A stretch of DNA of 64,000 bases from a virus, in the IMG/VR virus record IMGVR_UViG_3300033153_006492, positions 1 through 64,000 of that record; one strand, written 5' to 3'. Below are positions 12,054 through 32,654 of the stretch, piece by piece (position 1 is the first letter of the stretch; each line of letters opens with the position of its first letter). The position numbers were made by a program, and so were the translations under genes. The notes beneath the pieces are model-generated. The model saw nothing but the letters and a program-made list of their open reading frames with translations. It was not told the origin of the DNA and did no database searches.

Positions 12054-12057
12054 TCGT

Positions 12058-12133: not shown

Positions 12134-12166
12134 GGTTTTCCGTAGATAAATAAACCTCCATAATTT

Positions 12167-12213
12167 TTCTTTATTCTTAAATGTTATTAACTAATCGAAA
12201 TAAGAATAAAGGA
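12167..12213 (+). promoter_or_regulatory. 13-bp hairpin masking an RBS
   Basis: The 5' arm (12167-12179, TTCTTTATTCTTA) pairs along its whole length with 12201-12213, whose end AAAGGA is the ribosome binding site of the gene at 12222. The loop is 21 nt. It should strongly limit initiation unless melted. Confidence 0.6.
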
Positions 12214-12221
12214 GAATTAAA

Positions 12222-12939: not shown

Positions 12940-12946
12940 TATTAAT

Positions 12947-12972
12947 ATGGCGGCGGTAATGTCGCCATTTTT
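12947..12972 (+). terminator. Rho-independent terminator
   Basis: ATGGCG (12947-12952) pairs with CGCCAT (12963-12968), followed by TTTTT. Separates the Pth2-like gene from the suppressor tRNA. Confidence 0.75.
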
Positions 12973-12974
12973 AT

Positions 12975-13049
12975 CTGCTTGTAGCTCAGCCCGGTAGAGC
13001 GGAGAACTCTAAATTCTCGCCAGCGTCGGTTCGAATCCGACCAAGCGGA
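12975..13049 (+). tRNA. Amber suppressor tRNA (CUA)
   Basis: Acceptor CTGCTTG/CAAGCGG, U8, D arm GCTC/GAGC, anticodon stem GAGAA/TTCTC with loop CTCTAAA: U33 is followed by anticodon CTA (13009-13011), which reads UAG. The T arm GTCGG-TTCGAAT-CCGAC is perfect; discriminator A. The charged amino acid cannot be told. TAG is used as an apparent true stop by about ten genes here, so suppression is probably partial or stage-specific. Confidence 0.85.
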
Positions 13050-13074
13050 CGACAAGGATAGGAGAATAAATACA

Positions 13075-13344
13075 ATGATTAGTGAAGAAAAAAGAGCATT
13101 GGATGAAGCAAAACAACTGATTAAGACATATGGACAAAAGTATTTAATCAAGCATTTAATGGACATTGAAACTATTATAATGAAAATTGATACACCAGCC
13201 TCATTAGAATGTAATGGAATTGTTGTTTTACCAAAGCCGAAAATTAAAAAAGAATCTACTGATAAATTCAATAAAAATAATTTCCTATTTGGTATATTGA
13301 TTGGAATTTTATTTGGTATTGTATTTACAGTAGTGCTTATATAA
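13075..13344 (+). CDS. Tail-anchored membrane protein (89 aa)
   Basis: ATG after ATAGGAGAATAAATACA. A soluble helical N-terminus is followed by a single hydrophobic C-terminal helix (residues 69-89), a tail-anchor layout. No family recognised. Confidence 0.6.
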   Translation: MISEEKRALDEAKQLIKTYGQKYLIKHLMDIETIIMKIDTPASLECNGIVVLPKPKIKKESTDKFNKNNFLFGILIGILFGIVFTVVLI

Positions 13345-13359
13345 CTAAGGAGAAATTAT

Positions 13360-13836
13360 GTGGACAACATAACATATTTTATATTATTTATTTTTATACT
13401 TGGAATTTTGAATAGATTGCGGGAATTTTCTGACAACACAGGTTTTGATTCGTGGTGGGAAAACAGTTGGTTCGCAAAAATTAAAAATCAATTTTGGTTC
13501 AAATGGTTTAGGTCTAATCCATCGGATAAACACAAGCGAATATATTTATTACGATGGATTGGATTTATTGAAAGATGGAATCTGAAATTTACTAAATCTG
13601 AAACGTGGAAACGAATAAAGAATTTTAGTATTCCAAATCATCCAGCATTTTATGATGGTTATCATAATTTTAAATCAATCACATTGTTAGTGATATCTGT
13701 TTATGCAGGTATTCAATTTGGTTGGTATTGGATATTTGTATCGTGGCTTGCTTGGTATGTTGGACAAAAATTAACATACGCTGCTTTATTACGAAGCACG
13801 TGGGATTGGATTAAAAAAGTTATGTGGTTCAAATAA
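13360..13836 (+). CDS. Membrane-associated protein (158 aa)
   Basis: GTG start at 13360 lies seven bases after AAGGAG; an overlapping ATG at 13358 in another frame gives only four codons. An N-terminal hydrophobic helix and two more near residues 110-145, with many Trp residues between. Function unknown. Confidence 0.6.
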   Translation: MDNITYFILFIFILGILNRLREFSDNTGFDSWWENSWFAKIKNQFWFKWFRSNPSDKHKRIYLLRWIGFIERWNLKFTKSETWKRIKNFSIPNHPAFYDGYHNFKSITLLVISVYAGIQFGWYWIFVSWLAWYVGQKLTYAALLRSTWDWIKKVMWFK

Positions 13837-13854
13837 AATAGTAAAGGAAATAAG

Positions 13855-14052
13855 ATGATTAATAAAATGACGCTTCATACTGGAGAAAGTGATAATATTA
13901 TTTACATTGATTGGGATGGAAAACAGAAAAAACAAAAAGATATGATGCGTGTTGAAATAAAAGTACATAAAAATCATACTGTTAGAGTACTTGAAATTAA
14001 CATAAATGATGAAAATATAGTAACATTATTAGATGAGGAAGAAGATGCCTAA
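13855..14052 (+). CDS. Hypothetical protein (65 aa)
   Basis: ATG after TAAAGGAAATAAG. Small beta-rich protein, no recognised motif; its end overlaps the exonuclease gene by 8 nt. Confidence 0.55.
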   Translation: MINKMTLHTGESDNIIYIDWDGKQKKQKDMMRVEIKVHKNHTVRVLEININDENIVTLLDEEEDA

Positions 14053-14680
14053 AAAAATACAAAGATTAAATATAATTGATTTGGAGTCGACATGCTGGCC
14101 TGATCAAATTGCTCCAAATGGAGCACCTCAAAGATTCGCGTCTGAAATAATTGAAATAGGAATAGCTCAAGTAGATGTAAAGTCGCTTGAAATTTTAGAA
14201 AAGAAAAGTTATTTGGTTAAGCCAGTAACATATCCTAAATTGAGTAAGTATTGTACTGATTTAACAAGTATAACCAATGAAATGTTAGATGAAGAAGGAA
14301 CGACGTTAGCCTATGCTATTGCTCGAATGTTATCTGAATTTAAGACGATGAAGTATGAATGGGCTTCGTGGGGAGATTATGACAGAAGCCAATTCCAACG
14401 AGAATGTGAGCATAAGAATATACAATATCCTTTTCACAAGACACATCTTAACTTGAAATATATATTATCTACGTTAATAGGAAGCAAAGTACAACGGAAC
14501 ATGGATGGTATAATGGAATTCTTAGATATGAAATTTGAAGGAAGCGCTCACAGAGGTGTTGATGATGCTTATAATACAGCGAAGATATATATTAAGATTA
14601 TGGCTGCTATTGGTGAAACAGTTAATTCGAGAGTACTCTGTCAACTTTGGGGAGACGACTTCCACAAGGAAAATAGTTAG
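14045..14680 (+). CDS. DEDDh 3'-5' exonuclease (211 aa)
   Basis: Start at 14045 follows GAGGAAGAAG; an in-frame ATG at 14033 is possible. The Exo I motif is IDLEST (D12, E14). 'EIIEIGIAQVD' follows, then 'WASWGDYDRSQF' (Exo II region) and 'HRGVDDAYNTA' (Exo III with the His and Asp of the DEDDh class). The layout matches KapD/ERI-1-type exonucleases that trim RNA or DNA 3' ends. Given the neighbouring RNA genes, RNA processing is plausible. Confidence 0.8.
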   Translation: MPKKIQRLNIIDLESTCWPDQIAPNGAPQRFASEIIEIGIAQVDVKSLEILEKKSYLVKPVTYPKLSKYCTDLTSITNEMLDEEGTTLAYAIARMLSEFKTMKYEWASWGDYDRSQFQRECEHKNIQYPFHKTHLNLKYILSTLIGSKVQRNMDGIMEFLDMKFEGSAHRGVDDAYNTAKIYIKIMAAIGETVNSRVLCQLWGDDFHKENS

Positions 14681-14811
14681 ATGATATAATGACATCTTTT
14701 TATGATAATGATGTGACATAATGACACAACAATTTTCTATTCGCTATCTGTGAATTATGAAGTTCTTAAAAAACAATAGGTTACGACTTTGGTACGATAT
14801 TTGTAGTGTAT

Positions 14812-14845
14812 TATAGTAATTAAATAATATTACTTACTATAAAGG
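14812..14845 (+). promoter_or_regulatory. Hairpin next to hsp20 RBS
   Basis: TATAGTA (14812-14818) pairs with TACTATA (14835-14841), directly abutting AAGGAG (14842-14847). It could be a regulator binding site or a weak RNA thermometer of the kind known upstream of small heat-shock genes. The other bases of 14681-14811 show no gene. Confidence 0.35.
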
Positions 14846-14853
14846 AGAACACT

Positions 14854-15270
14854 ATGAATCATTTACGCAAATATCGTAACAATCCATTTTTATCAACTAC
14901 ATTATTCGATGAAATGTTGGGTGAATTATTTCAACCGCGCGTTTCATACGACGCAGCTAAAATTGATGTTAAGGAATATGATGATAAAGTTGAAGTTATT
15001 GCAGAAATTCCTGGGTTTACAAAAGAAGACGTTACACTCGAATATGAAAAAGGACATCTGACAATTACTGGCGAATTAAAAAAGGATGCTGCTGAAGAAA
15101 CTGGTAAATTTTTACACAAAGAAATTGGTAGCCGGTCATTCGCTCGCAAATTTAATCTTGGAGATTTATTTGATGTATCTAAAATTGATGCTACGTTCAA
15201 TGATGGTATACTAAGTATTACATTACCAAAGAGTGAAGACGAAAAGTCTCGCAAAATTACCATCAAATAA
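14854..15270 (+). CDS. Small heat-shock protein, Hsp20 family (138 aa)
   Basis: ATG after AAAGGAGAACACT. The alpha-crystallin domain spans about residues 38-130 ('IDVKEYDDKVEVIAEIPGF', 'LTITGELKKD', 'FNDGILSITLPK'). The N-terminal 'FLSTTLFDEMLGELF' is typical of bacterial Hsp20s. ATP-independent holdase, common in T4-like cyanophages, where it may help capsid assembly or survival of infected cells. An RBS-adjacent hairpin may control it. Confidence 0.9.
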   Translation: MNHLRKYRNNPFLSTTLFDEMLGELFQPRVSYDAAKIDVKEYDDKVEVIAEIPGFTKEDVTLEYEKGHLTITGELKKDAAEETGKFLHKEIGSRSFARKFNLGDLFDVSKIDATFNDGILSITLPKSEDEKSRKITIK

Positions 15271-15290
15271 CAACTGTAGGAGAAGTACCA

Positions 15291-15506
15291 ATGGACATTA
15301 TTGATTTTCAAGATAAACGATGGCAAGTAAAACATAGAGTCCGAGACGAAGGAATAACGTCTGAGGGATTAGAATGGTTTAAGTGGTACAAAGGAGCCAC
15401 AATGGTTTTGAAAAAAGATGGTGTCCTTCTTTTCGTTGACGAAATAGTTGACGCTGAATTTGAAGATTTTCCATATAAAAAAGATGAAAAAACACTTGAC
15501 AATTAA
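15291..15506 (+). CDS. Hypothetical protein (71 aa)
   Basis: ATG after GTAGGAGAAGTACCA. Small beta-rich protein, no recognised motif. Its 3' end contains the -35 box of the next promoter. Confidence 0.55.
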   Translation: MDIIDFQDKRWQVKHRVRDEGITSEGLEWFKWYKGATMVLKKDGVLLFVDEIVDAEFEDFPYKKDEKTLDN

Positions 15507-15524
15507 GTTTTTTATACTTATATT
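15496..15524 (+). promoter_or_regulatory. Early-type promoter TTGACA-N17-TATATT
   Basis: TTGACA (15496-15501) and TATATT (15519-15524), 17-bp spacer, followed by CTGG. The -35 box overlaps the end of the preceding gene. Drives the gene at 15549. Confidence 0.8.
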
Positions 15525-15548
15525 CTGGGTACTAATAAGGAGAAACTT

Positions 15549-15842
15549 ATGAATGGTGTTATTGAAATTGTATTAGTTAATGTTAGAGCAATGATGGAAG
15601 TTACTAATCGTATTCGAAAGGCAGAAGAATTTTTTGAAAAGGAAATGGCATTTATTGATGATATTGATGTGGATACATTTCATTCATATTCAGAAGAACT
15701 ATTTCATATAAAAGAAGCTTTCAATGAGTGTGAAATAAAATATGAAAAAGGCGAAAATGTTTTTCTTGAAGTATTGTCGATATATCGTGCTTCTTTTGGG
15801 GTCGAACATTACATTCAGAGTATGAGTAAAGAAGATTATTAA
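15549..15842 (+). CDS. Hypothetical helical protein (97 aa)
   Basis: ATG after TAAGGAGAAACTT. Acidic, all-helical pattern, no recognised domain. Transcribed from its own promoter at 15496. Confidence 0.6.
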   Translation: MNGVIEIVLVNVRAMMEVTNRIRKAEEFFEKEMAFIDDIDVDTFHSYSEELFHIKEAFNECEIKYEKGENVFLEVLSIYRASFGVEHYIQSMSKEDY

Positions 15843-15899
15843 AATAAATGGAACTTTATTGAAATTAAATCGTGTAATTAGGTATGTTTGAAAAAAATA

Positions 15900-15911
15900 T
15901 ATATACTTATA
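15900..15911 (+). promoter_or_regulatory. Candidate late promoter variant
   Basis: TATATACTTATA differs by one base from the TATATATTTATA core of the late-type motif. It precedes a 3-codon ORF (15968) and the basic protein at 16001. Confidence 0.35.
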
Positions 15912-16000
15912 CTTGTATATATAAAATTTAAGAAGAATAATAAAAATTTAAAAGAAGGGAGATTGTCATGAATATGTGAAACTAAGAAGGAGAACATATC

Positions 16001-16162
16001 ATGGCAAAATCTCGAAGTGGATACAAACACCGTAAGCATGGTCGCGATAAAGTGAACTGTGAACGGTATCGTCGTGAAGGTCGTCGCGAAAAGAACAAAG
16101 CGCGTCGCCAAGCGAAACGTGAACGTCGTTTAGAAAAACGTCGTATACGCAGAGGTCTTTAA
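16001..16162 (+). CDS. Very basic protein (53 aa)
   Basis: ATG after AAGGAGAACATATC. About half the residues are Arg or Lys, so it surely binds nucleic acid; it could be a DNA-condensing or RNA-binding protein. Codon use is visibly richer in GC (CGT, CGC) than its neighbours, suggesting high expression or foreign origin. The noncoding RNA cluster starts right after it. Confidence 0.65.
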   Translation: MAKSRSGYKHRKHGRDKVNCERYRREGRREKNKARRQAKRERRLEKRRIRRGL

Positions 16163-16170
16163 CAACTTTT

Positions 16171-16330
16171 AGGGTCGGAGATGCAACGTTACCTCAGACG
16201 AAGCTGAAGAGAAGGTGAGTTTTCATACTTTACTCACTAACCATTCTATAAAACGAAGCCGAAAGGTTAGAATGGTCAGTATAAGTGTCTTGATAATAAC
16301 AAACAAGTAAAAAGTCATTGATATAACAAT
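16171..16330 (+). ncRNA. Structured RNA upstream of TROVE gene (RNA-1)
   Basis: No ORF. Starts with GGGTCGG and contains GTTACCTCA. Helices: TTACCT/AGGTGA (16189-16194, 16213-16218), TGAGT/ACTCA (16216-16236) and a perfect 9-bp ACCATTCTA/TAGAATGGT (16240-16276). It shares GGGTCG..GTTACCTCA..CGAA with RNA-2 at 16405. Candidate Y-type RNA partner of the TROVE protein; inferred from position and paired elements. Confidence 0.45.
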
Positions 16331-16404
16331 GTAAATAAAAACGTGGAATAAACTACGGAATAAACAATTCTTCGTTGGTCATAATTTATCCTAAAGCATT
16401 TTAA

Positions 16405-16500
16405 ATGGGTCGCTGGTACAGGGTTACCTCAATCGAAAACTGCGGCGTTCGCGCCGTAGGTGAAGCAGGACGTGATGCTCGTCAATCTCCTTGTCCACTT
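16405..16500 (+). ncRNA. Structured RNA upstream of TROVE gene (RNA-2)
   Basis: GGGTCGC... with an outer helix ACAGGG/CCTTGT (16418-16423, 16489-16494), an 8-bp hairpin CTGCGGCG-TTCG-CGCCGTAG with a stable UUCG tetraloop (16440-16459), and GACG/CGTC (16469-16483). It shares 5' sequence features with RNA-1. Y-RNA-like function is a hypothesis from its location. Confidence 0.5.
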
Positions 16501-16528
16501 TTATCCGTTTATATTTTTAACATTACAT

Positions 16529-16602
16529 TGCGGGGTAGAGCAGTCTGGTAGCTTGCTTGGCTCATAACCAAGTGGTCGCTGGTTCAAATCCAGCCCCCGC
16601 AA
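16529..16602 (+). tRNA. Initiator tRNA-fMet (CAU)
   Basis: TGCGGGG...CCCCGCA with anticodon arm CTTGG-CTCATAA-CCAAG and T arm GCTGG-TTCAAAT-CCAGC. Sequence and layout closely follow bacterial initiator tRNAs (AGCAGTCTGGTAGCT in the D arm). Position 1:72 is T:A rather than the bacterial mismatch C:A. Only two G:C-type pairs close the anticodon stem, not the usual three. Phage initiator tRNAs are uncommon. Confidence 0.85.
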
Positions 16603-16634
16603 CTTTATAGGTCTTTCACAATATAATAATACAA

Positions 16635-16965
16635 GTCCTCGTGGCCGAATAACACGTATAGGCGTGTAAGGCATTGTAGCCCCAGCTGAAAAGCTTGGGG
16701 AGCGAGTTACGAACTTGGTGCGGATAAGGTGGCGACGTTCTGGAAGTGAGATCAACTTTTGGGGTTGAAATAAACAGAAACGAGCGCACGATTGCAGAAA
16801 TCCCCTAATACTTGGCATATAGCTACTATCTGTGATTATGAAGGTACAATCAATCCTTCCACTATTTAAAGATAAATTTCGACGGAGATTTATTGGTGTG
16901 ACTGAAAAATCCAAGTCCAGGCGTACGTTTGTGGGTAGATGCGAATCCCACCGAGGCATTTTTTT
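16635..16965 (+). ncRNA. tRNA-like RNA, candidate YrlA-type Y RNA
   Basis: CCTCG (16637-16641) pairs with CGAGG (16952-16956). U8, a D stem GCC/GGC and a T arm GTGGG/CCCAC (16931-16951) run directly into the acceptor strand as in a tRNA. The D loop carries an inserted hairpin ACACG/CGTGT and the T loop is 11 nt. About 240 nt of structured RNA replaces the anticodon arm, including CCCCAGCT-GAAA-AGCTTGGGG. It ends in TTTTTTT. Bacterial YrlA RNAs have tRNA-like domains and sit next to TROVE genes, as here. Confidence 0.5.
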
Positions 16966-16979
16966 ATTAAAGTAACAAA

Positions 16980-17045
16980 ACATTATTATTGGGTCGTGAA
17001 TGATGGTCATCGAGCATTCGTAAAAAACATCATTCAACATTTATC
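16980..17045 (+). ncRNA. Short GGGTCG hairpin RNA
   Basis: TGAATGATG pairs perfectly with CATCATTCA (9 bp) and GGGTCG precedes it, as in RNA-1 and RNA-2. It may be the 5' leader of the TROVE transcript or a further Y-type RNA. Confidence 0.35.
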
Positions 17046-17064
17046 TGGTTAATATTTTTAAGTG

Positions 17065-17097
17065 AACCCGCCAGATATTTCTGTGCGGGTTTTTTTG
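17065..17097 (+). terminator. Rho-independent terminator
   Basis: ACCCGC...GCGGGT with inner CAGA-TATT-TCTG, then TTTTTTT. It closes the RNA cluster just before the TROVE gene. Confidence 0.85.
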
Positions 17098-17141
17098 TTT
17101 ATAAATTAGAGTCATTAATTCTAAATCAGGAGGTACATATC

Positions 17142-18830
17142 ATGCAAAAGTATAACAAACATGTAAACACACAAAAGACTTCACAACAAGAAGCAATTTT
17201 AGGTCGTGAAAAAGAAATGGCAAAGAACTATGCTGGTGGTGTAGTTTTTAAATTAGACGATTGGAAGGTACTTGATAGGTTCTTAATTCTTGGAAGCGAC
17301 AAACCTACTTACTATGCGTCTGCTCAAAAATTGACTAAAGAACATGCTAAGAATGTAATGGGATTAATTCAGGAAGATGCTAAGCGTGTCGTAGACCGTG
17401 TAGTTGAAATTTCATTAGCTGGTCGCGCACCAAACAACGATCCAGCATTATTCATTCTTGCGATGGTTGCAGGATTGGCTGACGACGAAGGAAAGAAATA
17501 TGCACTTAGTGTTCTTTCTAAAGTAGCCCGTATTGGAACACACTTATTTCACTTTGCAGAATATGTACAAGGGTTTCGAGGTTGGGGTCGTGGATTAAGA
17601 AATGGAATTGCCAAATGGTATCTTGAAAAGGATATTGATAAATTGGCTCTTCAAGTTGTAAAATATCAATCTCGCGATGGATGGTCTCACCGAGACATTC
17701 TTCGTAAGACTCACGTACAAGCCTTCAACGATGATATGAACAAAATTTTCGCTTGGGTTACACATGGAATTGGCGGCGAAATGAAAGTTAAGGGTGGAGA
17801 AACTGTAGAGACATTTCCACATACTGTTAATGATGTAAAGGACATTAAATTGATCTATGCATTTGAAATGGCTAAGAAAGCAACGTCGGAAGATGAAATC
17901 GTTGCTTTGATTAAGGAATACAGATTGCCAAGAGAAGCTATTCCTACGAATTTCATGGGTAAGAAAGTTTACCGAGCTCTTTTACCAGGGATGCCTATGA
18001 CTGCGTTAATTCGGAATTTAGGTAACCTGTCGAAGAATGGAATTCTTGTTGCTGGAAATTTTGACGACATTAATATGGTTGTTGAAAAAATTACTAACGA
18101 AGAAAACCTTAAAAAAGCAAGAGTTCATCCTATGCAATTGTTGATGGCAATGAAAACTTACGGAGCTGGACACGGAATGCGTGGGAAAGGTGAATGGAAA
18201 GTTGTACCACAGATCGTTGATGCTTTGGATGAAGCATTCTACAAAGCATTCTCATTTATTGTACCATCTGGAAAACGAATTCTTATTGCGCTTGATATTT
18301 CCGGTTCAATGGGTATGGATTACGGTGTGGCTGGTATTACTGGATTTACACCAAGAGAAGCATCTGCTGCTATGGCAATGGTAACGATGAAGGCAGAAAA
18401 GAATTGGGCAATTGTAGGATTTTCTGGTGGATATGGTAATGGGAGTTGGAATAATAACCGTGATGAATTAATCACATTGGATTTATCACCGAACATGAGA
18501 TTGAATGATGTTGTTAGAAAGGTAAGCAATTTACCATTTGGGTCTACTGATTGTGCATTACCTGCTGTTTGGGCGAAAAAAAATAAACTGGACTTTGATG
18601 CGATCTACATTTATACAGACAGCGAAACTTGGGTTGGAAACATTCAACCGGTTCAAGCGATGAGAGATTATCGTAAAGCTGTTGGACATGATGTTAAACT
18701 TGTTGTGGTAGCAATGACCTCGACTGGATTCACAATTGCTGATCCAAAAGACGCCTCTATGCTTGACGTTGTAGGATTTGATAGTAATGCACCTGCAATA
18801 ATGTCAAGCTTTGTAGACGATAAATTATAA
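17142..18830 (+). CDS. TROVE-domain Ro60 homologue (562 aa)
   Basis: Ro60/Rsr proteins are ring-shaped RNA-binding proteins that hold Y RNAs and misfolded RNAs and can feed exonucleases. The TROVE HEAT-repeat region covers about residues 30-370 (including 'RDILRKTHVQ'). A vWA-like domain follows, with an intact MIDAS motif DISGS at 385-389 ('ALDISGSM'), and ends near 562. Length is usual for bacterial Rsr. ATG after CAGGAGGTACATATC. The upstream kilobase encodes tRNA-like and hairpin RNAs, as expected for a Ro/Y RNA locus. RtcB is not in this window. Confidence 0.92.
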   Translation: MQKYNKHVNTQKTSQQEAILGREKEMAKNYAGGVVFKLDDWKVLDRFLILGSDKPTYYASAQKLTKEHAKNVMGLIQEDAKRVVDRVVEISLAGRAPNNDPALFILAMVAGLADDEGKKYALSVLSKVARIGTHLFHFAEYVQGFRGWGRGLRNGIAKWYLEKDIDKLALQVVKYQSRDGWSHRDILRKTHVQAFNDDMNKIFAWVTHGIGGEMKVKGGETVETFPHTVNDVKDIKLIYAFEMAKKATSEDEIVALIKEYRLPREAIPTNFMGKKVYRALLPGMPMTALIRNLGNLSKNGILVAGNFDDINMVVEKITNEENLKKARVHPMQLLMAMKTYGAGHGMRGKGEWKVVPQIVDALDEAFYKAFSFIVPSGKRILIALDISGSMGMDYGVAGITGFTPREASAAMAMVTMKAEKNWAIVGFSGGYGNGSWNNNRDELITLDLSPNMRLNDVVRKVSNLPFGSTDCALPAVWAKKNKLDFDAIYIYTDSETWVGNIQPVQAMRDYRKAVGHDVKLVVVAMTSTGFTIADPKDASMLDVVGFDSNAPAIMSSFVDDKL

Positions 18831-19291: not shown

Positions 19292-19320
19292 TTGATTAGT
19301 AAGGTCAAATTTCGTATATT
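19292..19320 (+). promoter_or_regulatory. Early-type promoter TTGATT-N17-TATATT
   Basis: TTGATT (19292-19297), 17-bp spacer, TATATT (19315-19320), then CTG. The spacer end 'AAATTTCG' matches the promoter at 18940. Drives the helicase/methyltransferase/nuclease genes. Confidence 0.78.
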
Positions 19321-19350: not shown

Positions 19351-22044
19351 ATGGCTAAAAGTAAGAAACGTATTGAAGAAACTCGACGAGCTAAAGTTAT
19401 GAAATGGAAGTCGAAATTTAAAGCAAAACGAGTAGATAAATCTATCCATGAAAATCAAATATTATATGATATGGCTGGAACTGATCATTGGGAAGATCAT
19501 TTACAAGCCGGTCATACTCCCTGGTCTAAAGCTGGAGAATCTGTATTGAATGATAATAGATTGGTTGATAATCGAGCAAAAGAACATGATAGATCGGCTG
19601 CATCTATGCGACCTATGTTACAAGATGGAGCACCAAGATGGTCATATTCATTAACGGACAAAACAGGATATGCAATGTATCAAATGGATAATCAGCACTG
19701 GATACCTTATATGGAAAAACAAGGTTGGGTTGAGGTTACACGTAATGATAAAAATGTTGTTGAAACGGTTCAATTTAATGCAGCAATGTATAACGATGAA
19801 ATAGTATTTTTTGAAAAAGATCCGGATTATATTCCACCTGCTGATGATTCACCACACAAAAGAAGTTTGAAGTTGGCTGTATTTCCCGATGGTCATATGG
19901 AAGATCTTTCGGACAGAGAAAATTATGAAAAGATTTTATTTACTCCATTATTGACCTTTGCGATTGAAAGTCTTTTAAATGACAGTGAAGTACGACAAGA
20001 ATATTTACAAGATAGAGGTTCAAATAGAGCCGCGAAAAGAAAATATTTTAGAGTAATGTTAAAATATTTTGGTCGTAATGGAATAAAATTAAATAAACAA
20101 AGAGTAAATGAGTTGTGTTTTCTTTTGGGTATGACGACAGGTACCGGAAAAACTGAACAATTTATTAATTATGCTATATGGGCTACCCGTCATTTTGGAA
20201 TGCCGAATATCCATCTTATAGTGTCTCCATGGCCGGATACTTTGAAGGAATTTCAAGGTCGGGTAAATAAATGGCAAGATTTTATAGATGAATCTGTTGA
20301 ATACATTGATTCTAAAAAGTTTTCCAATAAAAGTAAAATTGAAATACTGAATTATGATAAGAACAAAATATATTTGATTGGTGTTTCGATGCAAGATATT
20401 AAAATGAAGATGGTTGATAAAAAGGGTGGAAAACAAATAGTTGAGATTAACGATGTAAATGAATTTGTAACTGAGGTTTTTGAGAAAAGATTTTCAAACT
20501 TAGCAGATTATAAATTTGGGTTGTTGGGGATTGATGAAGCCCACTTTGGGACTCGGACAACTCGCTGGCAAGAGGTTCAAACAAGAATTAATTATCAAGC
20601 GTCAGTTTTCATAACTGCTACACCACATGATTATCTCGCTGATTCATATTTTCCAGATGAATTTCGGTTTTTATATTCTTATGAAGATATAATGGCAGCT
20701 AAAATAAATGGCGAAAAATGGGCAGAAGTATTTCCTACAAGAGATCTTTATATGTTGAACATTGCTTCAGCAGTTTTAATGTATAGAGAACGTGGCTACT
20801 CATTACCAGAAGATTTTAACTTTGAAAAGTTGTTCGATTATGATAAAAATAATGTTGACAATGGACATTATGGGTTTAAATACGGATCTGTGTTGGTTGA
20901 ATTGTTTAAAGAAATGTTTAAAACTGGTGATGGTCAACTTACTATAACTGGATTAAATGGTTTGTGTGATTTTTCTAAAAATCATGGTATAATGTCTGTT
21001 CCAACAGGTGATAGTGACGCTGTGGTTCGCGCATTAAAGAATCTTTTAATAAGAGATATACATACAATATTTGGGAAAAATGCCGACGAATCGAAAAGAA
21101 CTAAAATCTTCACGAAGGCTGATAATAAAATCAGTGAAATACAAGATTTTACTGATAAAAATGCCATTGGTGGAACATGGAAGAGTTTGACATTAACTTG
21201 TAATCGTTGGTTAACTGGTGTAGATGTTCCGGCGTGGGGATATTTGGTACTTCTTAGGTCTATTAAGGACATCAAATTACAAGAACAATCATTTGGTCGC
21301 GTGAATCGTCCAGTTTGTGAAAAGGGTATAATTATGAAGCCCAATTGTGCGATTTTTATTGCTGATCCTGAATATACCATTTCATTATCAACAAAAGCGT
21401 GGAGTGATTCAATGAAACACGGGATTAGTATAGAAGCAATGGCGAGGGAAATGTATAGAACATATCCGGTATTTTATGGAGATGGTAATGGTTGGATAAA
21501 AGCCGATGAAGAATATGTATTGAAACTTATCGTTGATAGTGATCCATGTGGAATACGAACATTGAGAAATTTACATAAGTTTGATTTGACAAATAGAGAA
21601 ATACCTTCTGAAGAAGAAGAATTGATAAAATCTTTAACTTTAAAAGATAGCCAAAAATCAGTTTTCACAAAAAAGAAAAATAAAAATGGAACTGATAAAG
21701 CTAAGACTTTTGTTAATTTGGAAAGATTCCAAAAAGCTAATAAAAAGGAAAAAGATCCGAATAAAATGTACAAATTGTTGTTGAGGGAATTTATTATACG
21801 GATACCCGAATTACTTGAGCTAACTAATTGGAAAGTAAAATCAATTGGAGAGTTATTCAATTTAACTACGATTGAACAACATGGTATTGAAATGTCAATG
21901 GATGAAGCACTGGATTTTGATAGAATGATAATGGTAAGAGCTATTGAGCACCGAATTGTGGATGTTTTTGAGTATGATAGATGGATTGAAATATATATCC
22001 AAACAATGAAAAAAGATGAATTTTTTCGGAAATTACTTGAGTAA
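19351..22044 (+). CDS. SF2 helicase, restriction-translocase type (897 aa)
   Basis: Walker A TTGTGKT at 262-268, DEAH at 395-398, 'TATP' motif III soon after, and a motif VI-like 'SFGRVNRP' around 650, so both RecA-like domains are present. The N-terminal ~250 residues are not recognised; no nuclease motif was found in them. The helicase layout resembles translocases of type I, III and ISP restriction enzymes. Its neighbours are methyltransferase halves and a PD-(D/E)XK nuclease, which supports a restriction or DNA-modification role. Confidence 0.8.
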   Translation: MAKSKKRIEETRRAKVMKWKSKFKAKRVDKSIHENQILYDMAGTDHWEDHLQAGHTPWSKAGESVLNDNRLVDNRAKEHDRSAASMRPMLQDGAPRWSYSLTDKTGYAMYQMDNQHWIPYMEKQGWVEVTRNDKNVVETVQFNAAMYNDEIVFFEKDPDYIPPADDSPHKRSLKLAVFPDGHMEDLSDRENYEKILFTPLLTFAIESLLNDSEVRQEYLQDRGSNRAAKRKYFRVMLKYFGRNGIKLNKQRVNELCFLLGMTTGTGKTEQFINYAIWATRHFGMPNIHLIVSPWPDTLKEFQGRVNKWQDFIDESVEYIDSKKFSNKSKIEILNYDKNKIYLIGVSMQDIKMKMVDKKGGKQIVEINDVNEFVTEVFEKRFSNLADYKFGLLGIDEAHFGTRTTRWQEVQTRINYQASVFITATPHDYLADSYFPDEFRFLYSYEDIMAAKINGEKWAEVFPTRDLYMLNIASAVLMYRERGYSLPEDFNFEKLFDYDKNNVDNGHYGFKYGSVLVELFKEMFKTGDGQLTITGLNGLCDFSKNHGIMSVPTGDSDAVVRALKNLLIRDIHTIFGKNADESKRTKIFTKADNKISEIQDFTDKNAIGGTWKSLTLTCNRWLTGVDVPAWGYLVLLRSIKDIKLQEQSFGRVNRPVCEKGIIMKPNCAIFIADPEYTISLSTKAWSDSMKHGISIEAMAREMYRTYPVFYGDGNGWIKADEEYVLKLIVDSDPCGIRTLRNLHKFDLTNREIPSEEEELIKSLTLKDSQKSVFTKKKNKNGTDKAKTFVNLERFQKANKKEKDPNKMYKLLLREFIIRIPELLELTNWKVKSIGELFNLTTIEQHGIEMSMDEALDFDRMIMVRAIEHRIVDVFEYDRWIEIYIQTMKKDEFFRKLLE

Positions 22045-22085
22045 TACGAAAATTTTGTATATTATAGTATAAAAAAGGAATATTT

Positions 22086-23312
22086 ATGCAAGCATTATTA
22101 GATTTACGAGAAAGCCGGTATGCTGAAACATACACCAACAAAAAAGATGGATTGATTATGGATTCAGAAATTTTAATAGATGAATTTCGTGACGCAAAAG
22201 CTGCTGATGTATTATTTGATAAACTCGTATTAATGAACAATTTGCGTATAATTATTACTGAAAAAATGGGGAACTTTTCTCATTTTGTAATGTTAAACCT
22301 ATTGAAGAGAGGCTTGACAGAAAAACAAATTATTGAAGATATTCTTTATATTGAATGTCTTGAGAAAAGAGGAATTATATTAACTAAAAATCTTATAAAT
22401 CCACAAAATAAGTTTAGTGATAATATTGTATTATATGAAGGAAAATCAATGGAAAAAAAGGGGAGTATAGTGTTACAAAATCCACCCTATAACAAATCAA
22501 AGGGTGAACATTCAGGTATGGGTAATGCTCTTGCATGGACGAGTCATGTAGAGCAACGTAAAGCTGAAGTTATATCAGGTGGTTATTGTTTAAATGTACA
22601 TCCTGCTGGATTAAGAAAACCTGACAATAAGTTAGGTAGAGAAATGTTTGAAAATCAAATAGATTATATGGAAGTACATAATCTTGCTGATGGTCATAGA
22701 ACATTTCGTGCTGGGACTCGATATGATTGGTATATATGGCAAAATAGTATATGGAAAACTAAAACAGAATATCGTGATGAAGATGGTATAACTCATTTTA
22801 TTGATTTGAGAGAATGGCCATTTGTTCCAAATTGTTCGTTTGATTTAGTAAAACGAATTATTGATTTTGATGCTGTTGTAGATTTTAACGGTAGTTATAA
22901 CGGTAGAGTAATATTTAGTGAACATTATAAGCCAGGGAAAAATAATGTGTATTTGTCGGATGTGGAAACTGATGTGCATAAACATAAAGTGATTCATACT
23001 ATTTATGTCGGTGAAAAGAAAGAGCCTAAAGTTTATTTTAGTTCTACAAATGAATTGGGTGATTTTTGTACTAAAAAGGTTATTGTTGGGGAAAATGGTA
23101 ATGTGATGGCGGATTTTACCGGAAATTTGTTGTTGTCACAAAATGCGTTTGCCATTCCTACAAAAACTAATAAAGATACTGAAGATTTGGTCAAATTTTT
23201 TCATTCAAATGAGTGGAATGAAATAAGAAGAGCAACTTCTTGGAGTAATTTTAGAGTTGTATGGAGAATGTTTAAATATTGTAAACCTAATTTTTGGAGA
23301 GAGTTTATATAA
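22086..23312 (+). CDS. Adenine methyltransferase half with NPPY motif (408 aa)
   Basis: NPPY motif IV (residues 132-135) marks an N6-adenine DNA methyltransferase. The following ~270 residues look like the rest of the catalytic domain plus a target-recognition region. No SAM-binding motif I (F-x-G-x-G type) is visible; that motif is in the next gene. In type ISP and Eco57I-like enzymes both lie in one chain with motif I first. Here they are separate and in reverse order. The stop overlaps the next start. Confidence 0.75.
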   Translation: MQALLDLRESRYAETYTNKKDGLIMDSEILIDEFRDAKAADVLFDKLVLMNNLRIIITEKMGNFSHFVMLNLLKRGLTEKQIIEDILYIECLEKRGIILTKNLINPQNKFSDNIVLYEGKSMEKKGSIVLQNPPYNKSKGEHSGMGNALAWTSHVEQRKAEVISGGYCLNVHPAGLRKPDNKLGREMFENQIDYMEVHNLADGHRTFRAGTRYDWYIWQNSIWKTKTEYRDEDGITHFIDLREWPFVPNCSFDLVKRIIDFDAVVDFNGSYNGRVIFSEHYKPGKNNVYLSDVETDVHKHKVIHTIYVGEKKEPKVYFSSTNELGDFCTKKVIVGENGNVMADFTGNLLLSQNAFAIPTKTNKDTEDLVKFFHSNEWNEIRRATSWSNFRVVWRMFKYCKPNFWREFI

Positions 23313-23863
23313 TGGGTATTACAATAGAAGAAAAAATACAAAAACACTTGGACGATAAATATAATACGATAGAAAAAGTAAAAACTTATGGTGAAGTTTT
23401 TACCCCGTTTTGGTTGATACGTGAAATGTTAGACAAAGTACCAAAAGATGTGTGGAAAAACCCACATGAAACATGGCTTGATCCATGTGCTGGACTTGGT
23501 AATTTCCATTGCATAGTATTGGAAAGATTATTAATTAGTTTGTCTGATTGGGAATCTGATATAGAAAAACGTTATAAACATATCATTGAGAAACAATTGT
23601 ATTTCATTGAATTAAATCCTAAATCTGTAAAATTTATAGAAGAAATATTTAATCCTGAAAAGAAGTATAAAATGAACCTTGTATGTGCTGATTCATTAGA
23701 TCCTGATCATCCTGGTTGGGATGAAGTTGGTTATATGTGGGATGAAGACGATAAAGAAATAATAAAAAGTCGTAGAGAATATAAAAAGGTATTTGAACGT
23801 AAACAGGTTAAAAAAATTGAAATAGAAGTAGACGAAGATACGGAATTATATAGGAAAGAATGA
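23312..23863 (+). CDS. Methyltransferase half with SAM motif I (183 aa)
   Basis: Start at 23312 (ATG overlapping the previous TAA); an upstream TTG is less likely. 'YGEVFTPFWLIREMLD' and 'DPCAGLGNF' from D57 are the classical start and motif I of N6-adenine methyltransferases of the type I/ISP class. Motif IV is absent here and present in the gene before, so the two proteins probably assemble into one enzyme. Confidence 0.8.
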   Translation: MGITIEEKIQKHLDDKYNTIEKVKTYGEVFTPFWLIREMLDKVPKDVWKNPHETWLDPCAGLGNFHCIVLERLLISLSDWESDIEKRYKHIIEKQLYFIELNPKSVKFIEEIFNPEKKYKMNLVCADSLDPDHPGWDEVGYMWDEDDKEIIKSRREYKKVFERKQVKKIEIEVDEDTELYRKE

Positions 23864-23906
23864 ATTTTGATATTGAAAACCGTAAACTTATTAGAGAGGA
23901 CTACTC

Positions 23907-24470
23907 GTGAATTTATTTGAATATAGATTGGATTTTGTAGCGTTATTTTTAGTTCACTTCAACGAAAAACTGCGACAACTTATGGATGTGTTTGAAATAG
24001 ATAATTGGGAGGATTTTCTGGTTGAAGAGGACGAGAAACAACGGACATCGAAGAGGGCTTCATTTTTATCACCGATGGTAGATTTGTGTATACAGAAGGC
24101 TGCTAAGGAATTAAAATTAGATTGGAAATTTATTGCTGGTGATGGATTTGATAGTATTTTAGAAGGTGAACAAATAGAACATAAATTCTCATTATCGACT
24201 GGGAATTCTTGGACTGGTCATCCATATTCAAATAAAGTTCCAAAACACTTATTAATAAAAACAGAAATATCTAATAATATATTAGACAAATTATTTATCG
24301 GAGTGGTTGAATTGGGTGATATGAATTACAGATCATCGGCTAATGGTACAAGTAGTTTTTCAAGCATAAAGATACACAACGATGATTTGGAACGCTGTAA
24401 TTTGCTATATGGTGGTCTACAACCTAAGATAAAATGGTGTAATGTTATTCCTCATTGTGTTGGAACTTAA
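23907..24470 (+). CDS. PD-(D/E)XK nuclease (187 aa)
   Basis: D82 followed by E91-H-K93 fits the D-x(n)-ExK catalytic signature on a beta-hairpin. 'FLSPMVDLCIQKAAKEL' and 'GDGFDSIL' surround it, as in restriction endonucleases with this fold. Directly after the split methyltransferase, consistent with a restriction-modification module. ATG after GAGGACTACTC. The following intergenic region has the next late-type promoter. Confidence 0.7.
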   Translation: MNLFEYRLDFVALFLVHFNEKLRQLMDVFEIDNWEDFLVEEDEKQRTSKRASFLSPMVDLCIQKAAKELKLDWKFIAGDGFDSILEGEQIEHKFSLSTGNSWTGHPYSNKVPKHLLIKTEISNNILDKLFIGVVELGDMNYRSSANGTSSFSSIKIHNDDLERCNLLYGGLQPKIKWCNVIPHCVGT

Positions 24471-28297: not shown

Positions 28298-28326
28298 TTG
28301 ACATTGAGTTGTGGATTTAGTATATT
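28298..28326 (+). promoter_or_regulatory. Early-type promoter TTGACA-N17-TATATT
   Basis: TTGACA (28298-28303), 17-bp spacer, TATATT (28321-28326), then CTG. Drives the Thg1-like gene. Confidence 0.85.
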
Positions 28327-28354
28327 CTGTAAAACTAACATAAGGGAAAATGTA

Positions 28355-29116
28355 ATGACTGATAGTTTAGGTGATCGGATGAAGAAATATGAAAAACAAG
28401 CATCTAATCAAATTGATGCTAATCTTCCTGTATTTGTACGATTGGATGGTAAAGCCTTCCATACATGGGTAAAAATTATGGGATGTGAGAAACCATTTGA
28501 TGAATCACTTTCATATCTTTTTCAAACAGCAACAGTTAATACTTGTCAAGATATTGGACAAGTGATTATGGCTTATAGTCAATCGGACGAAGTGACATTT
28601 TTATTAAGTGGTTGGCAGCATCTTGATTCCCAGATTTATTTTGGTGGGAAGAGTCAAAAGATTACGTCTGTTATTGCATCTATATTTACTGGTCATTTTA
28701 TCAGGACTTTGTTAGGTATGAATGAATATGCTGTATTGGCTGATGGTGAAATCAAATTACCTTCATTTGATGCTCGTGTATTTAATGTGCCTGTACATGA
28801 AATTGAAAATGTTTTTATTTGGCGACAGATGGATGCTAAGAGAAATTCTATTCAATCAATAGCCCGTTCATTGTATAGTCATAAAGAATTAAATGGAAAA
28901 TCATCTAAGATTATGTTAGATATGATTAAAGCTAAAGATTTAGATTGGAACGATTTACCTATTATTCAAAAGCTTGGATTTGTTGTTAAAAAGGATGAAT
29001 ACATTGTTCCGTCTGATACTGGTAATGTTGTTCGTACTCGTTGGATAATTGATAATGATATTCCATTTTTTGTAGATGAATCTGAATATATTACTGATTT
29101 AATTTCAGCAGAATAA
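28355..29116 (+). CDS. Thg1-like 3'-5' RNA polymerase (253 aa)
   Basis: Start at 28355 follows AGGGAAAATGTA. 'VFVRLDGKAFHTW' (D31) and 'AYSQSDEVTFLL' (D78, E79) are the metal-binding catalytic motifs of the tRNA-His guanylyltransferase family. Bacterial and phage Thg1-like proteins add nucleotides 3' to 5' and can repair tRNA 5' ends. Length is usual. It has its own early-type promoter. In a genome with a large tRNA array and odd tRNAs, 5'-end repair or maturation is a natural role; no tRNA-His was found in the window. Confidence 0.9.
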   Translation: MTDSLGDRMKKYEKQASNQIDANLPVFVRLDGKAFHTWVKIMGCEKPFDESLSYLFQTATVNTCQDIGQVIMAYSQSDEVTFLLSGWQHLDSQIYFGGKSQKITSVIASIFTGHFIRTLLGMNEYAVLADGEIKLPSFDARVFNVPVHEIENVFIWRQMDAKRNSIQSIARSLYSHKELNGKSSKIMLDMIKAKDLDWNDLPIIQKLGFVVKKDEYIVPSDTGNVVRTRWIIDNDIPFFVDESEYITDLISAE

Positions 29117-30255: not shown

Positions 30256-30669
30256 ATGGGAATTGGTAAATCGGCTGGATTGGCAATAGTATGTGGTGAT
30301 GAAATTTTATTAGTTCATCCTACGAATGCGCCTTGGACTGGAACATATTCAATACCAAAAGGGTTGATAGAAGATTTTGAAACAGCGTTTGAAGCTGCTA
30401 TTCGTGAGACGAAAGAAGAAATAGGATTAGATATTACTGTAGATATGATTGAATCACCCGGTGATATTATATATTATAGAAAGGCTAATAATAAAATATA
30501 TAAAAAGGTTTTTTATTTTATAGTTCGATTGGATAAAAAACCTGAAATTAAAAAAGAGAATCTCCAATTGGATGAAGTTGACTGGGCAGGTTTTGTTCAT
30601 AAAGATGAAGTTGAAGAAAAAATTTTCTGGAGATTTTTACCAATTTTGGAAAAGGTGTTTGAACGATAA
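30256..30669 (+). CDS. Nudix hydrolase (137 aa)
   Basis: Start at 30256 follows TGGAGGTGAG. A complete Nudix box (G36-x5-E42-x7-R50-E-x2-E-E-x-G-L58) is present on a typical alpha/beta fold, so it should hydrolyse a nucleoside diphosphate-linked substrate. The sequence does not tell the substrate; NAD- or ADP-ribose-related compounds fit the other NAD genes. The stop shares one base with the next start (TAATG). Confidence 0.88.
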   Translation: MGIGKSAGLAIVCGDEILLVHPTNAPWTGTYSIPKGLIEDFETAFEAAIRETKEEIGLDITVDMIESPGDIIYYRKANNKIYKKVFYFIVRLDKKPEIKKENLQLDEVDWAGFVHKDEVEEKIFWRFLPILEKVFER

Positions 30670-32654
30670 TGGCTAATTTTGATAAACATTATGTAGTTAA
30701 TTTTGCTCGCTTAGTATTAGAGTATGAAACTAAAGGTAAGATACTGGGTATAGCGTCGTCTGATAAAATGCTTCTTAGTCATGTGATGCGGGGTAAAATA
30801 AAAGAGTACGACGTTGTAAAGTTGATTGATAAAGCTTTATGTAAGTATGTAACTTTATTTTCATCTTATGGGATAAACTATAAGTCCTTAGCAATATCGA
30901 ATGATGATATAACTGCTGGAAAACGGGTATTTGATAAGTTAAGTATTTATGTTGATTTACAAAGCAACATGTTAGAAATACGATTACCGTGGTTGACGCG
31001 AAATAAATTTGATCCTTTGATACAATTCTTCAGAGAAGATTTGAACATGGAATTTGAAAAGCGTCAAGATAAGGATCCTGTTTGGTTTACTCTTGTACGA
31101 GATGAAGGAGTATTTGATGAAATAAAAAACAATCCATTAGTACAAGAAATTGGTTATGAAATGGATGACAGACAGATATTAGATTCGATTGCAAAGGCTA
31201 GAGTTGACAAGGAAAAACAAAAGAAGTTATTTGGGCTTTCAATGACAGCCAATCTTGGAATAGAATCCGGCGAATTCAAAGGATTATTTGCTAAGTTATA
31301 TCCATTCCAACAAGTTGCTATTGAGTATTCTAAATTTAGAAATGGTATATTAATTGCTGACGAAATGGGATTAGGGAAGACGCTTCAAGCTCTTGCTATC
31401 ACAGAATATCATCAGTTATATCCTGCTGTGATTGTAGTTCCTGCGATGTTACGACAGAATTGGAAACGCGAAATTGAATTATGGTTACCTCATAAGAAGG
31501 TGTCTGTGATTACTTCAAAAAAGGTTATACCTCCTGGAGAAATATATGTAGTTAGTTATGGAATGGTATCAGATTTGGGTAGTCGATTTTATATTAAGAA
31601 ACCAAAAGTTATTATATGTGATGAATCTCATTATTTGAAAAATCCTGACGCTGCTCGTACAGAATTTGTATTGAAGTATTTTAAGGATGTACCATTTAAG
31701 ATATTAACTACTGGAACACCGATATTAAATAAAACTCTTGAATTAGTACCTCAATTGGATTTGATTGGAGTTTTGGATTCACACTTTGGTGGTCGTAGAA
31801 AATTTATTAAACGATATGCTCCACCTCAATTTAATGGATATGGAACAACATACGGAAGCGCTAACGAAGAAGAATTACAAGTAGAATTACGAAAATCGTG
31901 TATGCTTCGTCGATTGAAAAAAGATGTATTAACTGAATTACCAGATAAGATTCGTCAAATTGTTTTATTGCCATTATCTGATAGAGCGGCTTATGAAAAG
32001 GTAGAACAGGATTCAATTAATTGGTATGAAACAAAACTTAAACGACAAGATTTATCTAAAGAAGAAGTTGATAAACAAGTTCAACAAAAATTGGCAACTC
32101 GTAGTTCTTTTGCTGAAAGAATGATTCGTGTAGAATATTTACGACAAGCCGCTGTTGATTACAAAATGAAGGCTGTATTTGAATGGATTGATGATACATT
32201 AGAACAAGTTGATAAATTAGTAGTATTTGCTTATCATAGAAACACTGTTGAACAATTATATAAACGATATGAAAAAATGTCTGTTATGTTATATGGTGGT
32301 ATGAGTGGTCAAGTTGATAGTATTGTAAATAAGTTTGTGACTGATAAACAAACTCGGTTATTTATAGGTTCAATGAAATCGGCTGGAATTGGTATTGATG
32401 GACTTCAGGAAGTGTGTGATAGAGCCGTATTTGTTGAATTAGATTGGACACCAGCAATAATGGCTCAGGCTGAAGATAGATTACATAGGATAAAGCAAAA
32501 GAATACTGTACACATATATTATTTGATTGGTGAAGGAACGATTGAAGAATATGTACATAGCATAGTTGTTGAGAAGGAAGAAATTTTCGAAAAGGCGACG
32601 AACATAAGCAAGTTATTTACTTGGATGAAGAAACGCAAGGCAGCGAAAGAATGA
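30669..32654 (+). CDS. SNF2-family DNA helicase (661 aa)
   Basis: The N-terminal ~195 residues are not recognised; the Snf2 core starts near 205 ('LYPFQQVAIEY'). Motif I DEMGLGKT (~230-237), motif II DESH (~318), motif III 'TGTP', motif V 'SAGIGIDGL' and motif VI 'QAEDRLHRIKQ' follow. This resembles SMARCAL1/HepA-like annealing helicases, which phages use in DNA replication and repair. It overlaps the HAD gene by 4 nt. Confidence 0.9.
   Translation: MANFDKHYVVNFARLVLEYETKGKILGIASSDKMLLSHVMRGKIKEYDVVKLIDKALCKYVTLFSSYGINYKSLAISNDDITAGKRVFDKLSIYVDLQSNMLEIRLPWLTRNKFDPLIQFFREDLNMEFEKRQDKDPVWFTLVRDEGVFDEIKNNPLVQEIGYEMDDRQILDSIAKARVDKEKQKKLFGLSMTANLGIESGEFKGLFAKLYPFQQVAIEYSKFRNGILIADEMGLGKTLQALAITEYHQLYPAVIVVPAMLRQNWKREIELWLPHKKVSVITSKKVIPPGEIYVVSYGMVSDLGSRFYIKKPKVIICDESHYLKNPDAARTEFVLKYFKDVPFKILTTGTPILNKTLELVPQLDLIGVLDSHFGGRRKFIKRYAPPQFNGYGTTYGSANEEELQVELRKSCMLRRLKKDVLTELPDKIRQIVLLPLSDRAAYEKVEQDSINWYETKLKRQDLSKEEVDKQVQQKLATRSSFAERMIRVEYLRQAAVDYKMKAVFEWIDDTLEQVDKLVVFAYHRNTVEQLYKRYEKMSVMLYGGMSGQVDSIVNKFVTDKQTRLFIGSMKSAGIGIDGLQEVCDRAVFVELDWTPAIMAQAEDRLHRIKQKNTVHIYYLIGEGTIEEYVHSIVVEKEEIFEKATNISKLFTWMKKRKAAKE

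What the first reader, a model, noticed from the sequence alone, without database searches (positions are those of the whole stretch)
19351..24470. Dismantled type ISP-like restriction module
Helicase, NPPY-bearing methyltransferase part, SAM-binding methyltransferase part and PD-(D/E)XK nuclease are four adjacent genes under one early-type promoter. In type ISP enzymes (LlaGI, LlaBIII) all these modules are in one chain. A four-subunit version in a phage could attack host or rival DNA, or protect phage DNA.
Basis: partly seen in the sequence, partly recalled or inferred. Interest (0 to 1): 0.75.

Follow-up and report, generated by a model that had tools for sequence, protein, structure and literature searches.

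The report
Split methyltransferase with helicase and nuclease
This phage carries four neighbouring genes for a DNA-marking enzyme cut into two proteins, a DNA motor and a DNA-cutting enzyme, probably a taken-apart restriction system that marks the phage's own DNA and cuts other DNA; relatives of the same kit turn up in dozens of very different phages, where parts of it are still labelled 'unknown function'.

Summary
The four genes are real: SF2 helicase (19351-22044), NPPY methyltransferase subunit MTb (22086-23312), stand-alone SAM-binding half MTa (23312-23863) and PD-(D/E)XK nuclease (23907-24470). All signature residues are present, and those of MTa and the nuclease are conserved in homologues. 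Of 55 non-truncated, dereplicated viral loci found with MTa alone, 52 have an NPPY gene alongside, 36 also a helicase fused to or next to it, 22 a recognisable nuclease (Mrr-like, GIY-YIG or this NaeI/PvuII-like type). Fully four-gene versions occur in marine cyanophage-type contigs and isolate ACG-2014f. Natural fusions show MTa+MTb are one enzyme: in normal order (L018) and in the window's swapped order (L127). Most likely a phage-borne, multi-subunit restriction-modification system. Activity is undemonstrated; some relatives keep only the split methylase, so self-protection may be the core role. New variant of a known kind.

The parts
19351..22044 (+). SF2 helicase/translocase subunit, 897 aa; Walker A codons from 20134, DEAH region from 20527, motif VI from 21286
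   Evidence: ResIII 1.3e-7; phrog_16 DNA helicase 5e-12; HsdR-like PRK11448 8.5e-6, far below its cut-off
22086..23312 (+). MTb: NPPY-bearing gamma-class adenine methyltransferase subunit with target-recognition domain, 408 aa; NPPY codons 22479-22490
   Evidence: model pLDDT 72; M.TaqI Z 20.7 over 327 residues, LlaGI Z 15.6, LlaBIII Z 14.8; blastp to LR756508 NPPY protein 1.3e-28 and to L018 1e-33
22158..22478 (+). decayed SAM-binding half inside MTb (about residues 25-131); motif I position reads ITEKMGNF, motif X lost
   Evidence: profile comparison with MTa E 3e-4, probability 39%; low-to-middling pLDDT in this part
23312..23863 (+). MTa: stand-alone SAM-binding half (motifs X, I, II, III; no motif IV), 183 aa; motif I codons 23477-23506
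   Evidence: profile hits CamA methyltransferase structures over the MTa core; phrog_4376 'unknown function' 3.7e-13
23907..24470 (+). PD-(D/E)XK nuclease, 187 aa, GTG start; D82, E91, K93 (E91 codon at 24177)
   Evidence: residues invariant 22/22; model pLDDT 78; NaeI Foldseek prob 1.00, NaeI Z 9.2 over 144 residues; phrog_11812 'unknown function'
19292..19320 (+). weak sigma-70-like promoter candidate upstream of the operon; not above chance

Best explanation
A phage-borne, multi-subunit ATP-dependent restriction-modification system in which the N6-adenine methyltransferase has been cut between motifs III and IV and its two pieces are encoded in swapped order. MTa binds S-adenosylmethionine; MTb carries the NPPY catalytic loop and the target-recognition domain; together they methylate a specific site on phage DNA, marking it as self. 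The SF2 motor and the PD-(D/E)XK nuclease probably associate with this complex and cleave DNA (host chromosome or a competing phage) that lacks the mark. Shown here: gene content, intact catalytic signatures, conserved gene neighbourhood, natural fusions in both orders, and fold resemblance of MTb and the nuclease. Inferred: complex formation, SAM binding in trans, methylation, translocation, cleavage and target.
For: Co-occurrence: of 55 non-truncated, dereplicated loci retrieved with MTa (or, for a few annotated phages, with MTa by tblastn), 52 have an NPPY gene alongside, 36 a helicase fused to or next to MTb, and 22 a recognisable nuclease. Complementary decay: MTa keeps motif I (D/E57 60/60, G61 60/60, G63 59/60), motif X (E28 and T31 60/60) and acidic motif II (60/60) but never NPPY, whereas 47 of 57 neighbouring MTb genes lack an intact motif I, 10 of them starting at or just before NPPY. 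Fusions: L018's single chain aligns with MTa (58-190) and then MTb (208-478); L127's 448-aa chain has NPPY at residue 8 and motif X/I at 332/360, its halves matching the MTb (E 9e-33) and MTa (47% identity) of L062. Four-gene clusters: helicase-MTb-nuclease-MTa in seven marine-type contigs, nuclease-helicase-MTb-MTa in L016, MTa-nuclease-MTb-helicase in isolate ACG-2014f. In L128, a contig binned to a Bacteroidales genome, a GIY-YIG-like/helicase/MTb fusion plus MTa sits beside Dcm-like and Vsr-like genes. Cyanophage homologues of the nuclease sit directly beside another, beta-class methyltransferase.
Against: No activity is shown. Many relatives have no recognised nuclease, and P-SSM2-type loci have no module helicase either, so restriction may be optional. 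In about six MTb genes the N-half is intact, so MTa is not simply a missing piece there. The window MTb model has its own (low-confidence) N-half sheet, which leaves unclear where MTa docks. The window's type of nuclease was not seen beside a split methylase in any other locus examined.
Confidence: 0.58

Rival explanations
1. Self-marking only: MTa+MTb modify phage DNA to evade host restriction; the helicase helps the methylase reach DNA during replication, and the nuclease is an unrelated passenger or serves recombination.
For: The split methylase is the constant part; P-SSM2-type loci have only MTb+MTa. Jumbo phages commonly carry methylases thought to be protective (PMC7824862). 33 of 55 loci have no recognised nuclease.
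Against: Three different nuclease types recur in or beside the helicase-MTb-MTa unit, and the order matches nuclease-motor-methylase restriction enzymes in L016 and L035. A nuclease with invariant catalytic residues is not expected if it does nothing.
Confidence: 0.25
2. MTa is an accessory SAM-binding regulator, not the missing half: MTb forms a complete but weak methyltransferase and MTa gates or boosts it.
For: MTb models as a complete M.TaqI-like fold (Z 20.7), and some MTb genes keep an intact motif I next to a separate MTa (L025, L020, L064, L039).
Against: MTb starts at NPPY with no N-half in about ten loci, always beside MTa. In L127 the two are one chain. Engineered methyltransferase fragments complement each other even with long overlaps (PMC5944983), so a vestigial N-half does not forbid complementation.
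Confidence: 0.15
3. Gene 4 is an independent type II-like enzyme that happens to follow the split methylase.
For: Its homologues in P-TIM40, S-H35 and S-MS29 sit directly beside a different (beta-class, TSPPY) methyltransferase as a compact type II-like pair.
Against: Here no second methyltransferase is adjacent, and the gene lies 43 nt after MTa on the same strand. Unrelated nucleases occupy the equivalent slot in the other modules.
Confidence: 0.2
4. Decayed remains of an acquired restriction gene.
For: MTb's own motif I is lost.
Against: All four frames are intact with catalytic residues in place; the same pattern of loss beside an intact MTa recurs in very divergent phages.
Confidence: 0.05

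Closest known systems
Type ISP restriction-modification enzymes (LlaGI, LlaBIII)
   Same: Nuclease, SF2 motor, gamma N6-adenine methyltransferase with NPPY, and target-recognition domain; the MTb model aligns with LlaGI (Z 15.6) and LlaBIII (Z 14.8).
   Different: Those are one chain with an Mrr-like, typically PD-QXK, nuclease first and the methyltransferase in one piece (PMC3874165, PMC4666363). Here: four genes, methyltransferase split and order-swapped, NaeI/PvuII-like PD-EXK nuclease encoded last.
M.TaqI, CamA and M.BseCI (gamma-class N6-adenine methyltransferases)
   Same: Same fold for MTb; M.TaqI matched over almost its full length. The MTa profile matches CamA's SAM-binding half.
   Different: Those are single chains with their own SAM site; window MTb has lost motifs X and I.
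Naturally bipartite C5-methyltransferase M.AquI and circularly permuted C5-methyltransferases
   Same: A DNA methyltransferase made of two polypeptides, or with permuted order (PMC5944983).
   Different: Cytosine-C5 class, cut between motif VIII and the target domain; here an adenine-N6 class enzyme cut between III and IV, with the SAM half alone.
Type I systems (HsdR, HsdM, HsdS)
   Same: Multi-subunit, motor plus nuclease plus methylase.
   Different: No separate specificity subunit; the methyltransferase itself is divided; the nuclease is not fused to the motor.
T5orf172 (GIY-YIG)-helicase proteins with MTb and MTa (L012, L128, L132)
   Same: Same helicase, MTb and MTa set, including contigs binned to Bacteroidales/Prevotella genomes.
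   Different: GIY-YIG-like domain fused to the helicase N-terminus instead of a separate PD-(D/E)XK gene.

Membership tests
Type ISP restriction-modification enzyme | All modules in a single polypeptide | tested here: not met
   Four ORFs with stop codons between them
Type ISP restriction-modification enzyme | Methyltransferase motif I upstream of motif IV in the chain/operon | tested here: not met
   The NPPY gene precedes the motif-I gene
Type ISP restriction-modification enzyme | Mrr-family nuclease, typically PD-QXK | tested here: inconclusive
   D-E-x-K, best folds NaeI/PvuII; no Pfam hit; absence of Mrr from the list is not proof. Relatives L088/L016/L005 carry D-x-GIDG...QxK-type nucleases, Mrr_cat only E 0.09
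Type ISP restriction-modification enzyme | SF2 translocase motor | tested here: met
   ResIII E 1.3e-7; Walker A, DEAH, TATP, QxxGRxxR present
Type ISP restriction-modification enzyme | ATP-dependent translocation and cleavage after collision of head-to-head sites; one-strand adenine methylation | not testable with these tools
   needs biochemistry
gamma-class N6-adenine DNA methyltransferase (MTa+MTb taken together) | Motifs X, I, II, III and IV (NPPY) | tested here: met
   X-III in MTa, IV in MTb; single-chain relatives L018 and L127
gamma-class N6-adenine DNA methyltransferase (MTa+MTb taken together) | Target-recognition domain and M.TaqI-like fold | tested here: met
   M.TaqI Z 20.7, rmsd 4.1, 327 residues; model confidence moderate
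gamma-class N6-adenine DNA methyltransferase (MTa+MTb taken together) | Methylates adenine | not testable with these tools
   needs long-read methylation calling or an in vitro assay
PD-(D/E)XK nuclease (gene 4) | D...(D/E)xK catalytic residues on the common core fold | tested here: met
   invariant in 22/22; NaeI Z 9.2 over 144 residues, PvuII/EcoRV below it
Type I restriction system | HsdR with fused nuclease and motor, HsdM, HsdS with two TRDs | tested here: not met
   separate nuclease, no S-subunit gene among the four
Known defence systems in PADLOC-DB | System-level model matches for the window genes | tested here: not met
   no match for genes 1, 2, 4; gene 3 only generic methyltransferase models

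The most novel reading that the evidence does not exclude
A 'kit' restriction-modification system: one small SAM-loading subunit (MTa) serves several interchangeable catalytic/target-recognition subunits (three MTb genes around one MTa in L025; two in L027, L043 and L001) and several exchangeable nucleases (Mrr-like, GIY-YIG, NaeI-like). Phages would then be able to swap target specificity and weapon without rebuilding the enzyme, marking their own DNA and destroying host or rival DNA.
Probability: 0.3. Interest if true: 0.82.

Novelty: new variant of a known kind. Interest (0 to 1): 0.63.

Why it matters
It identifies two protein families filed as 'unknown function' (phrog_4376, MTa; phrog_11812, nuclease) as parts of a restriction-modification-like module found from Lak megaphages to marine cyanophages, including cultured isolates that can be tested. 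It adds a natural example of an adenine methyltransferase cut between its SAM-binding and catalytic halves, in permuted order, with fused counterparts of both orders, so the assembly and evolution of such enzymes become directly testable. If active, it would mean that lytic phages carry their own self/non-self DNA discrimination.

Tried and rejected
Single-sequence scans of viral contigs with helicase, MTb and MTa found no relatives; only alignments reached them. tblastn of the helicase against phage records: no match. phmmer of the helicase and the nuclease profile against PDB sequences: nothing credible. UvsW-like helicases near cyanophage MTa genes (such as P-SSM2 gp039) were not counted as module members, because UvsW is a core gene of these phages (PMC7824862); only helicases fused to or next to MTb were counted, and in the ACG-2014f-type clusters this distinction remains uncertain. 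A simple 'MTb is a half protein' reading was rejected. A single origin for MTa could not be resolved: the tree has 117 columns, well-supported branches force at least two changes of the split label, and the window's MTa groups with full-length enzymes (a first attempt failed). Amber recoding as a complication for gene ends was set aside, since TAG ends 7 of 48 long + strand ORFs. Literature: no paper describing this split module was found in the held library; the library is open-access only.

Full report
Observation. The window is the first 64 kb of a 78.7-kb virus record. The helicase has a ResIII domain and all the main SF2 motifs. MTb carries LQNPPY, with NPPY at residue 132. MTa carries motif X (GEVFTP), I (LDPCAGLGNF), II (FIELN) and III (VCADSL) and nothing like motif IV. 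The fourth gene has D82, E91 and K93. MTb's stop and MTa's start overlap as TAATG, so MTa is best taken as 23312-23863. The claimed single promoter could not be confirmed.

Gene 4 is a restriction-type nuclease by fold. D82, E91 and K93 are invariant in all 22 aligned sequences. The AlphaFold model (pLDDT 78) matches NaeI, PvuII and EcoRV in Foldseek (best E 3e-3, prob 1.00) and NaeI at Z 9.2 over 144 residues in the re-alignment, with most of the top rows being restriction enzymes. Z near 9 is only modestly above background for this aligner, but the catalytic residues agree. In cyanophages P-TIM40, S-H35 and S-MS29 its homologues sit directly beside a beta-class methyltransferase, which looks like a compact type II-like pair.

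MTb. The model (pLDDT 72 overall, about 40-74 in the N-terminal 130 residues) aligns with M.TaqI over residues 25-408 (Z 20.7), with CamA, M.BseCI, LlaGI and LlaBIII lower. So MTb contains the catalytic half and a target-recognition domain, plus an N-terminal region in the place of the SAM-binding half. That region has lost motifs X and I (ITEKMGNF in place of DPCAGxGNF). A profile comparison with MTa aligns them in the expected register but weakly (E 3e-4, probability 39%). Caution: the alignment given to AlphaFold contained full-length methyltransferases, so the N-terminal model may lean on them.

Related loci. A scan of viral contigs with the MTa alignment gave 426 relatives, of which 80 were kept. 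After adding annotated phages and removing near-duplicates, 60 stand-alone MTa genes remained. MTa keeps D/E57 in 60/60, G61 in 60/60, G63 in 59/60, acidic motif II in 60/60 and motif X T31 in 60/60. Of 55 loci not cut by a contig end, 52 have an NPPY gene within three genes, 36 have a helicase fused to or next to MTb, and 22 have a recognised nuclease. The three exceptions are explicable: an HNH-like ORF sits between MTb and MTa (L058; its twin L062 has MTb beyond it), a NAPY variant (L037), and L029, whose twins L032/L033 have an MTb in that position. Because loci were found with MTa, these neighbours are not an artefact of the query; the set is, however, the best 80 by similarity.

State of MTb across loci. 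Ten MTb genes begin at or just before NPPY with no SAM half (P-SSM2-type, LR756508, L013, L031). 37 keep a region without an intact motif I by pattern. Ten are flagged as having one (the pattern is loose; three genes in L025 plus L020, L064 and L039 are clear by eye, L078 less canonical). This graded loss in MTb, beside an always intact MTa, is what trans-complementation would produce, but the intact cases show that MTa can also coexist with a complete methylase.

Fusions. L018's 478-aa chain aligns with window MTa (58-190) and then MTb (208-478): the normal order. L127, a 5.4-kb contig binned to a rumen Paludibacteraceae genome, encodes a 448-aa chain with NPPY at residue 8 and motif X/I at 332/360; residues 1-298 match L062 MTb (E 9e-33) and 320-444 match L062 MTa (47%, E 2e-28). 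This is a single-chain, permuted version of the window's gene order. Together they make it very likely that MTa and MTb act as one enzyme.

Four-part clusters. Helicase-MTb-nuclease-MTa: L042, L075, L082, L083, L088, L089, L090. Nuclease-helicase-MTb-MTa: L016. Nuclease fused to helicase: L035. MTa-MTb-helicase-nuclease: L065. Nuclease-MTb-helicase-MTa: L081. Isolate Synechococcus phage ACG-2014f: MTa gp051, nuclease gp052, MTb gp053, helicase gp054. Prevotella phage Lak-B4 has helicase, a 286-aa gene without a Pfam match, MTb and MTa. In most of these clusters the nuclease reads D-x-GIDG...QxK, as in Mrr-like enzymes, though Pfam does not score it significantly. Other loci carry a GIY-YIG-like T5orf172/MUG113 domain at the helicase N-terminus: significant in L012 and L132, below cut-off in L128, and ten phage helicases by an iterated local profile. 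In L128 the module lies beside Dcm-like and Vsr-like genes (identified by reading the translations). Single-chain helicase-methyltransferase proteins also exist (L019, L023). One MTa is surrounded by three MTb genes in L025 and two in L027, L043 and L001.

How it probably works. MTa supplies SAM and MTb supplies the catalytic loop and target recognition; the pair marks phage DNA. Fragments of C5 methyltransferases complement even when they overlap by long stretches, and a naturally two-chain enzyme (M.AquI) exists (PMC5944983), so a vestigial N-half in MTb is no bar. The motor and nuclease would act on unmarked DNA in the manner of type ISP or type I enzymes (PMC4666363, PMC3874165). The methylation step rests on strong comparative evidence; the restriction step on gene association and catalytic residues only. 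Since some relatives retain just the split methylase, self-protection may be the oldest or commonest role.

Novelty. The jumbo-phage survey notes circularly permuted M.EcoKI-like methylases and split polymerases but, in the passages searched, not this split module. PHROGs files MTa and the nuclease as unknown function, and PADLOC does not recognise the operon. I rate it a new variant of a known kind.

Noticed in passing
window 17142-18830, with 16160-17140: A Ro60 (TROVE + vWA) homologue sits next to a GC-richer stretch without long + strand ORFs that holds a tRNA-Met; a Y-like RNA would be expected near Ro60, but Rfam finds only the tRNA.
   Followed up: partly
window 41125-44947: vWA-domain, PP2C phosphatase and protein-kinase-like genes in a row (vWA and kinase below Pfam cut-offs), resembling a TerY-type phosphorylation triad.
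   Followed up: partly
window 9029-10189 and 35081-35560: Nicotinate phosphoribosyltransferase (NAPRTase) and a NADAR-domain gene: NAD/ADP-ribose metabolism in a phage, possibly counter-defence.
   Followed up: partly
window 35828-36277; 45075-45704; 28298-29116; 14854-15270: NifU/IscU-like iron-sulfur scaffold, peptide deformylase, Thg1-like tRNA guanylyltransferase and a protein that reads like a small heat-shock protein (translation only).
   Followed up: partly
window 1-16603 and 47073-47145: 23 tRNA genes including one with CTA anticodon (12975-13050, called Pyl by ARAGORN); TAG still ends 7 of 48 long + strand ORFs, so no sign of amber recoding.
   Followed up: partly
L008 6839-8285, L009 6875-8321, L010 797-2183: Cyanophages P-TIM40, S-H35 and S-MS29 carry a compact pair of gene-4-like nuclease and TSPPY methyltransferase, apparently a phage-borne type II-like system annotated as hypothetical protein plus methyltransferase.
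   Followed up: partly
L062 1675-2340: An HNH-endonuclease-like ORF lies between MTb and MTa, suggesting that free-standing homing endonucleases invade this pair.
   Followed up: no
L001 14235-16088: A TDPPY methyltransferase ORF of LR756508 appears to carry an intein or insert between its two halves (617 aa with a long non-methyltransferase middle).
   Followed up: no
window 30669-32654: A second SF2 ATPase, SNF2-type, separate from the finding.
   Followed up: no
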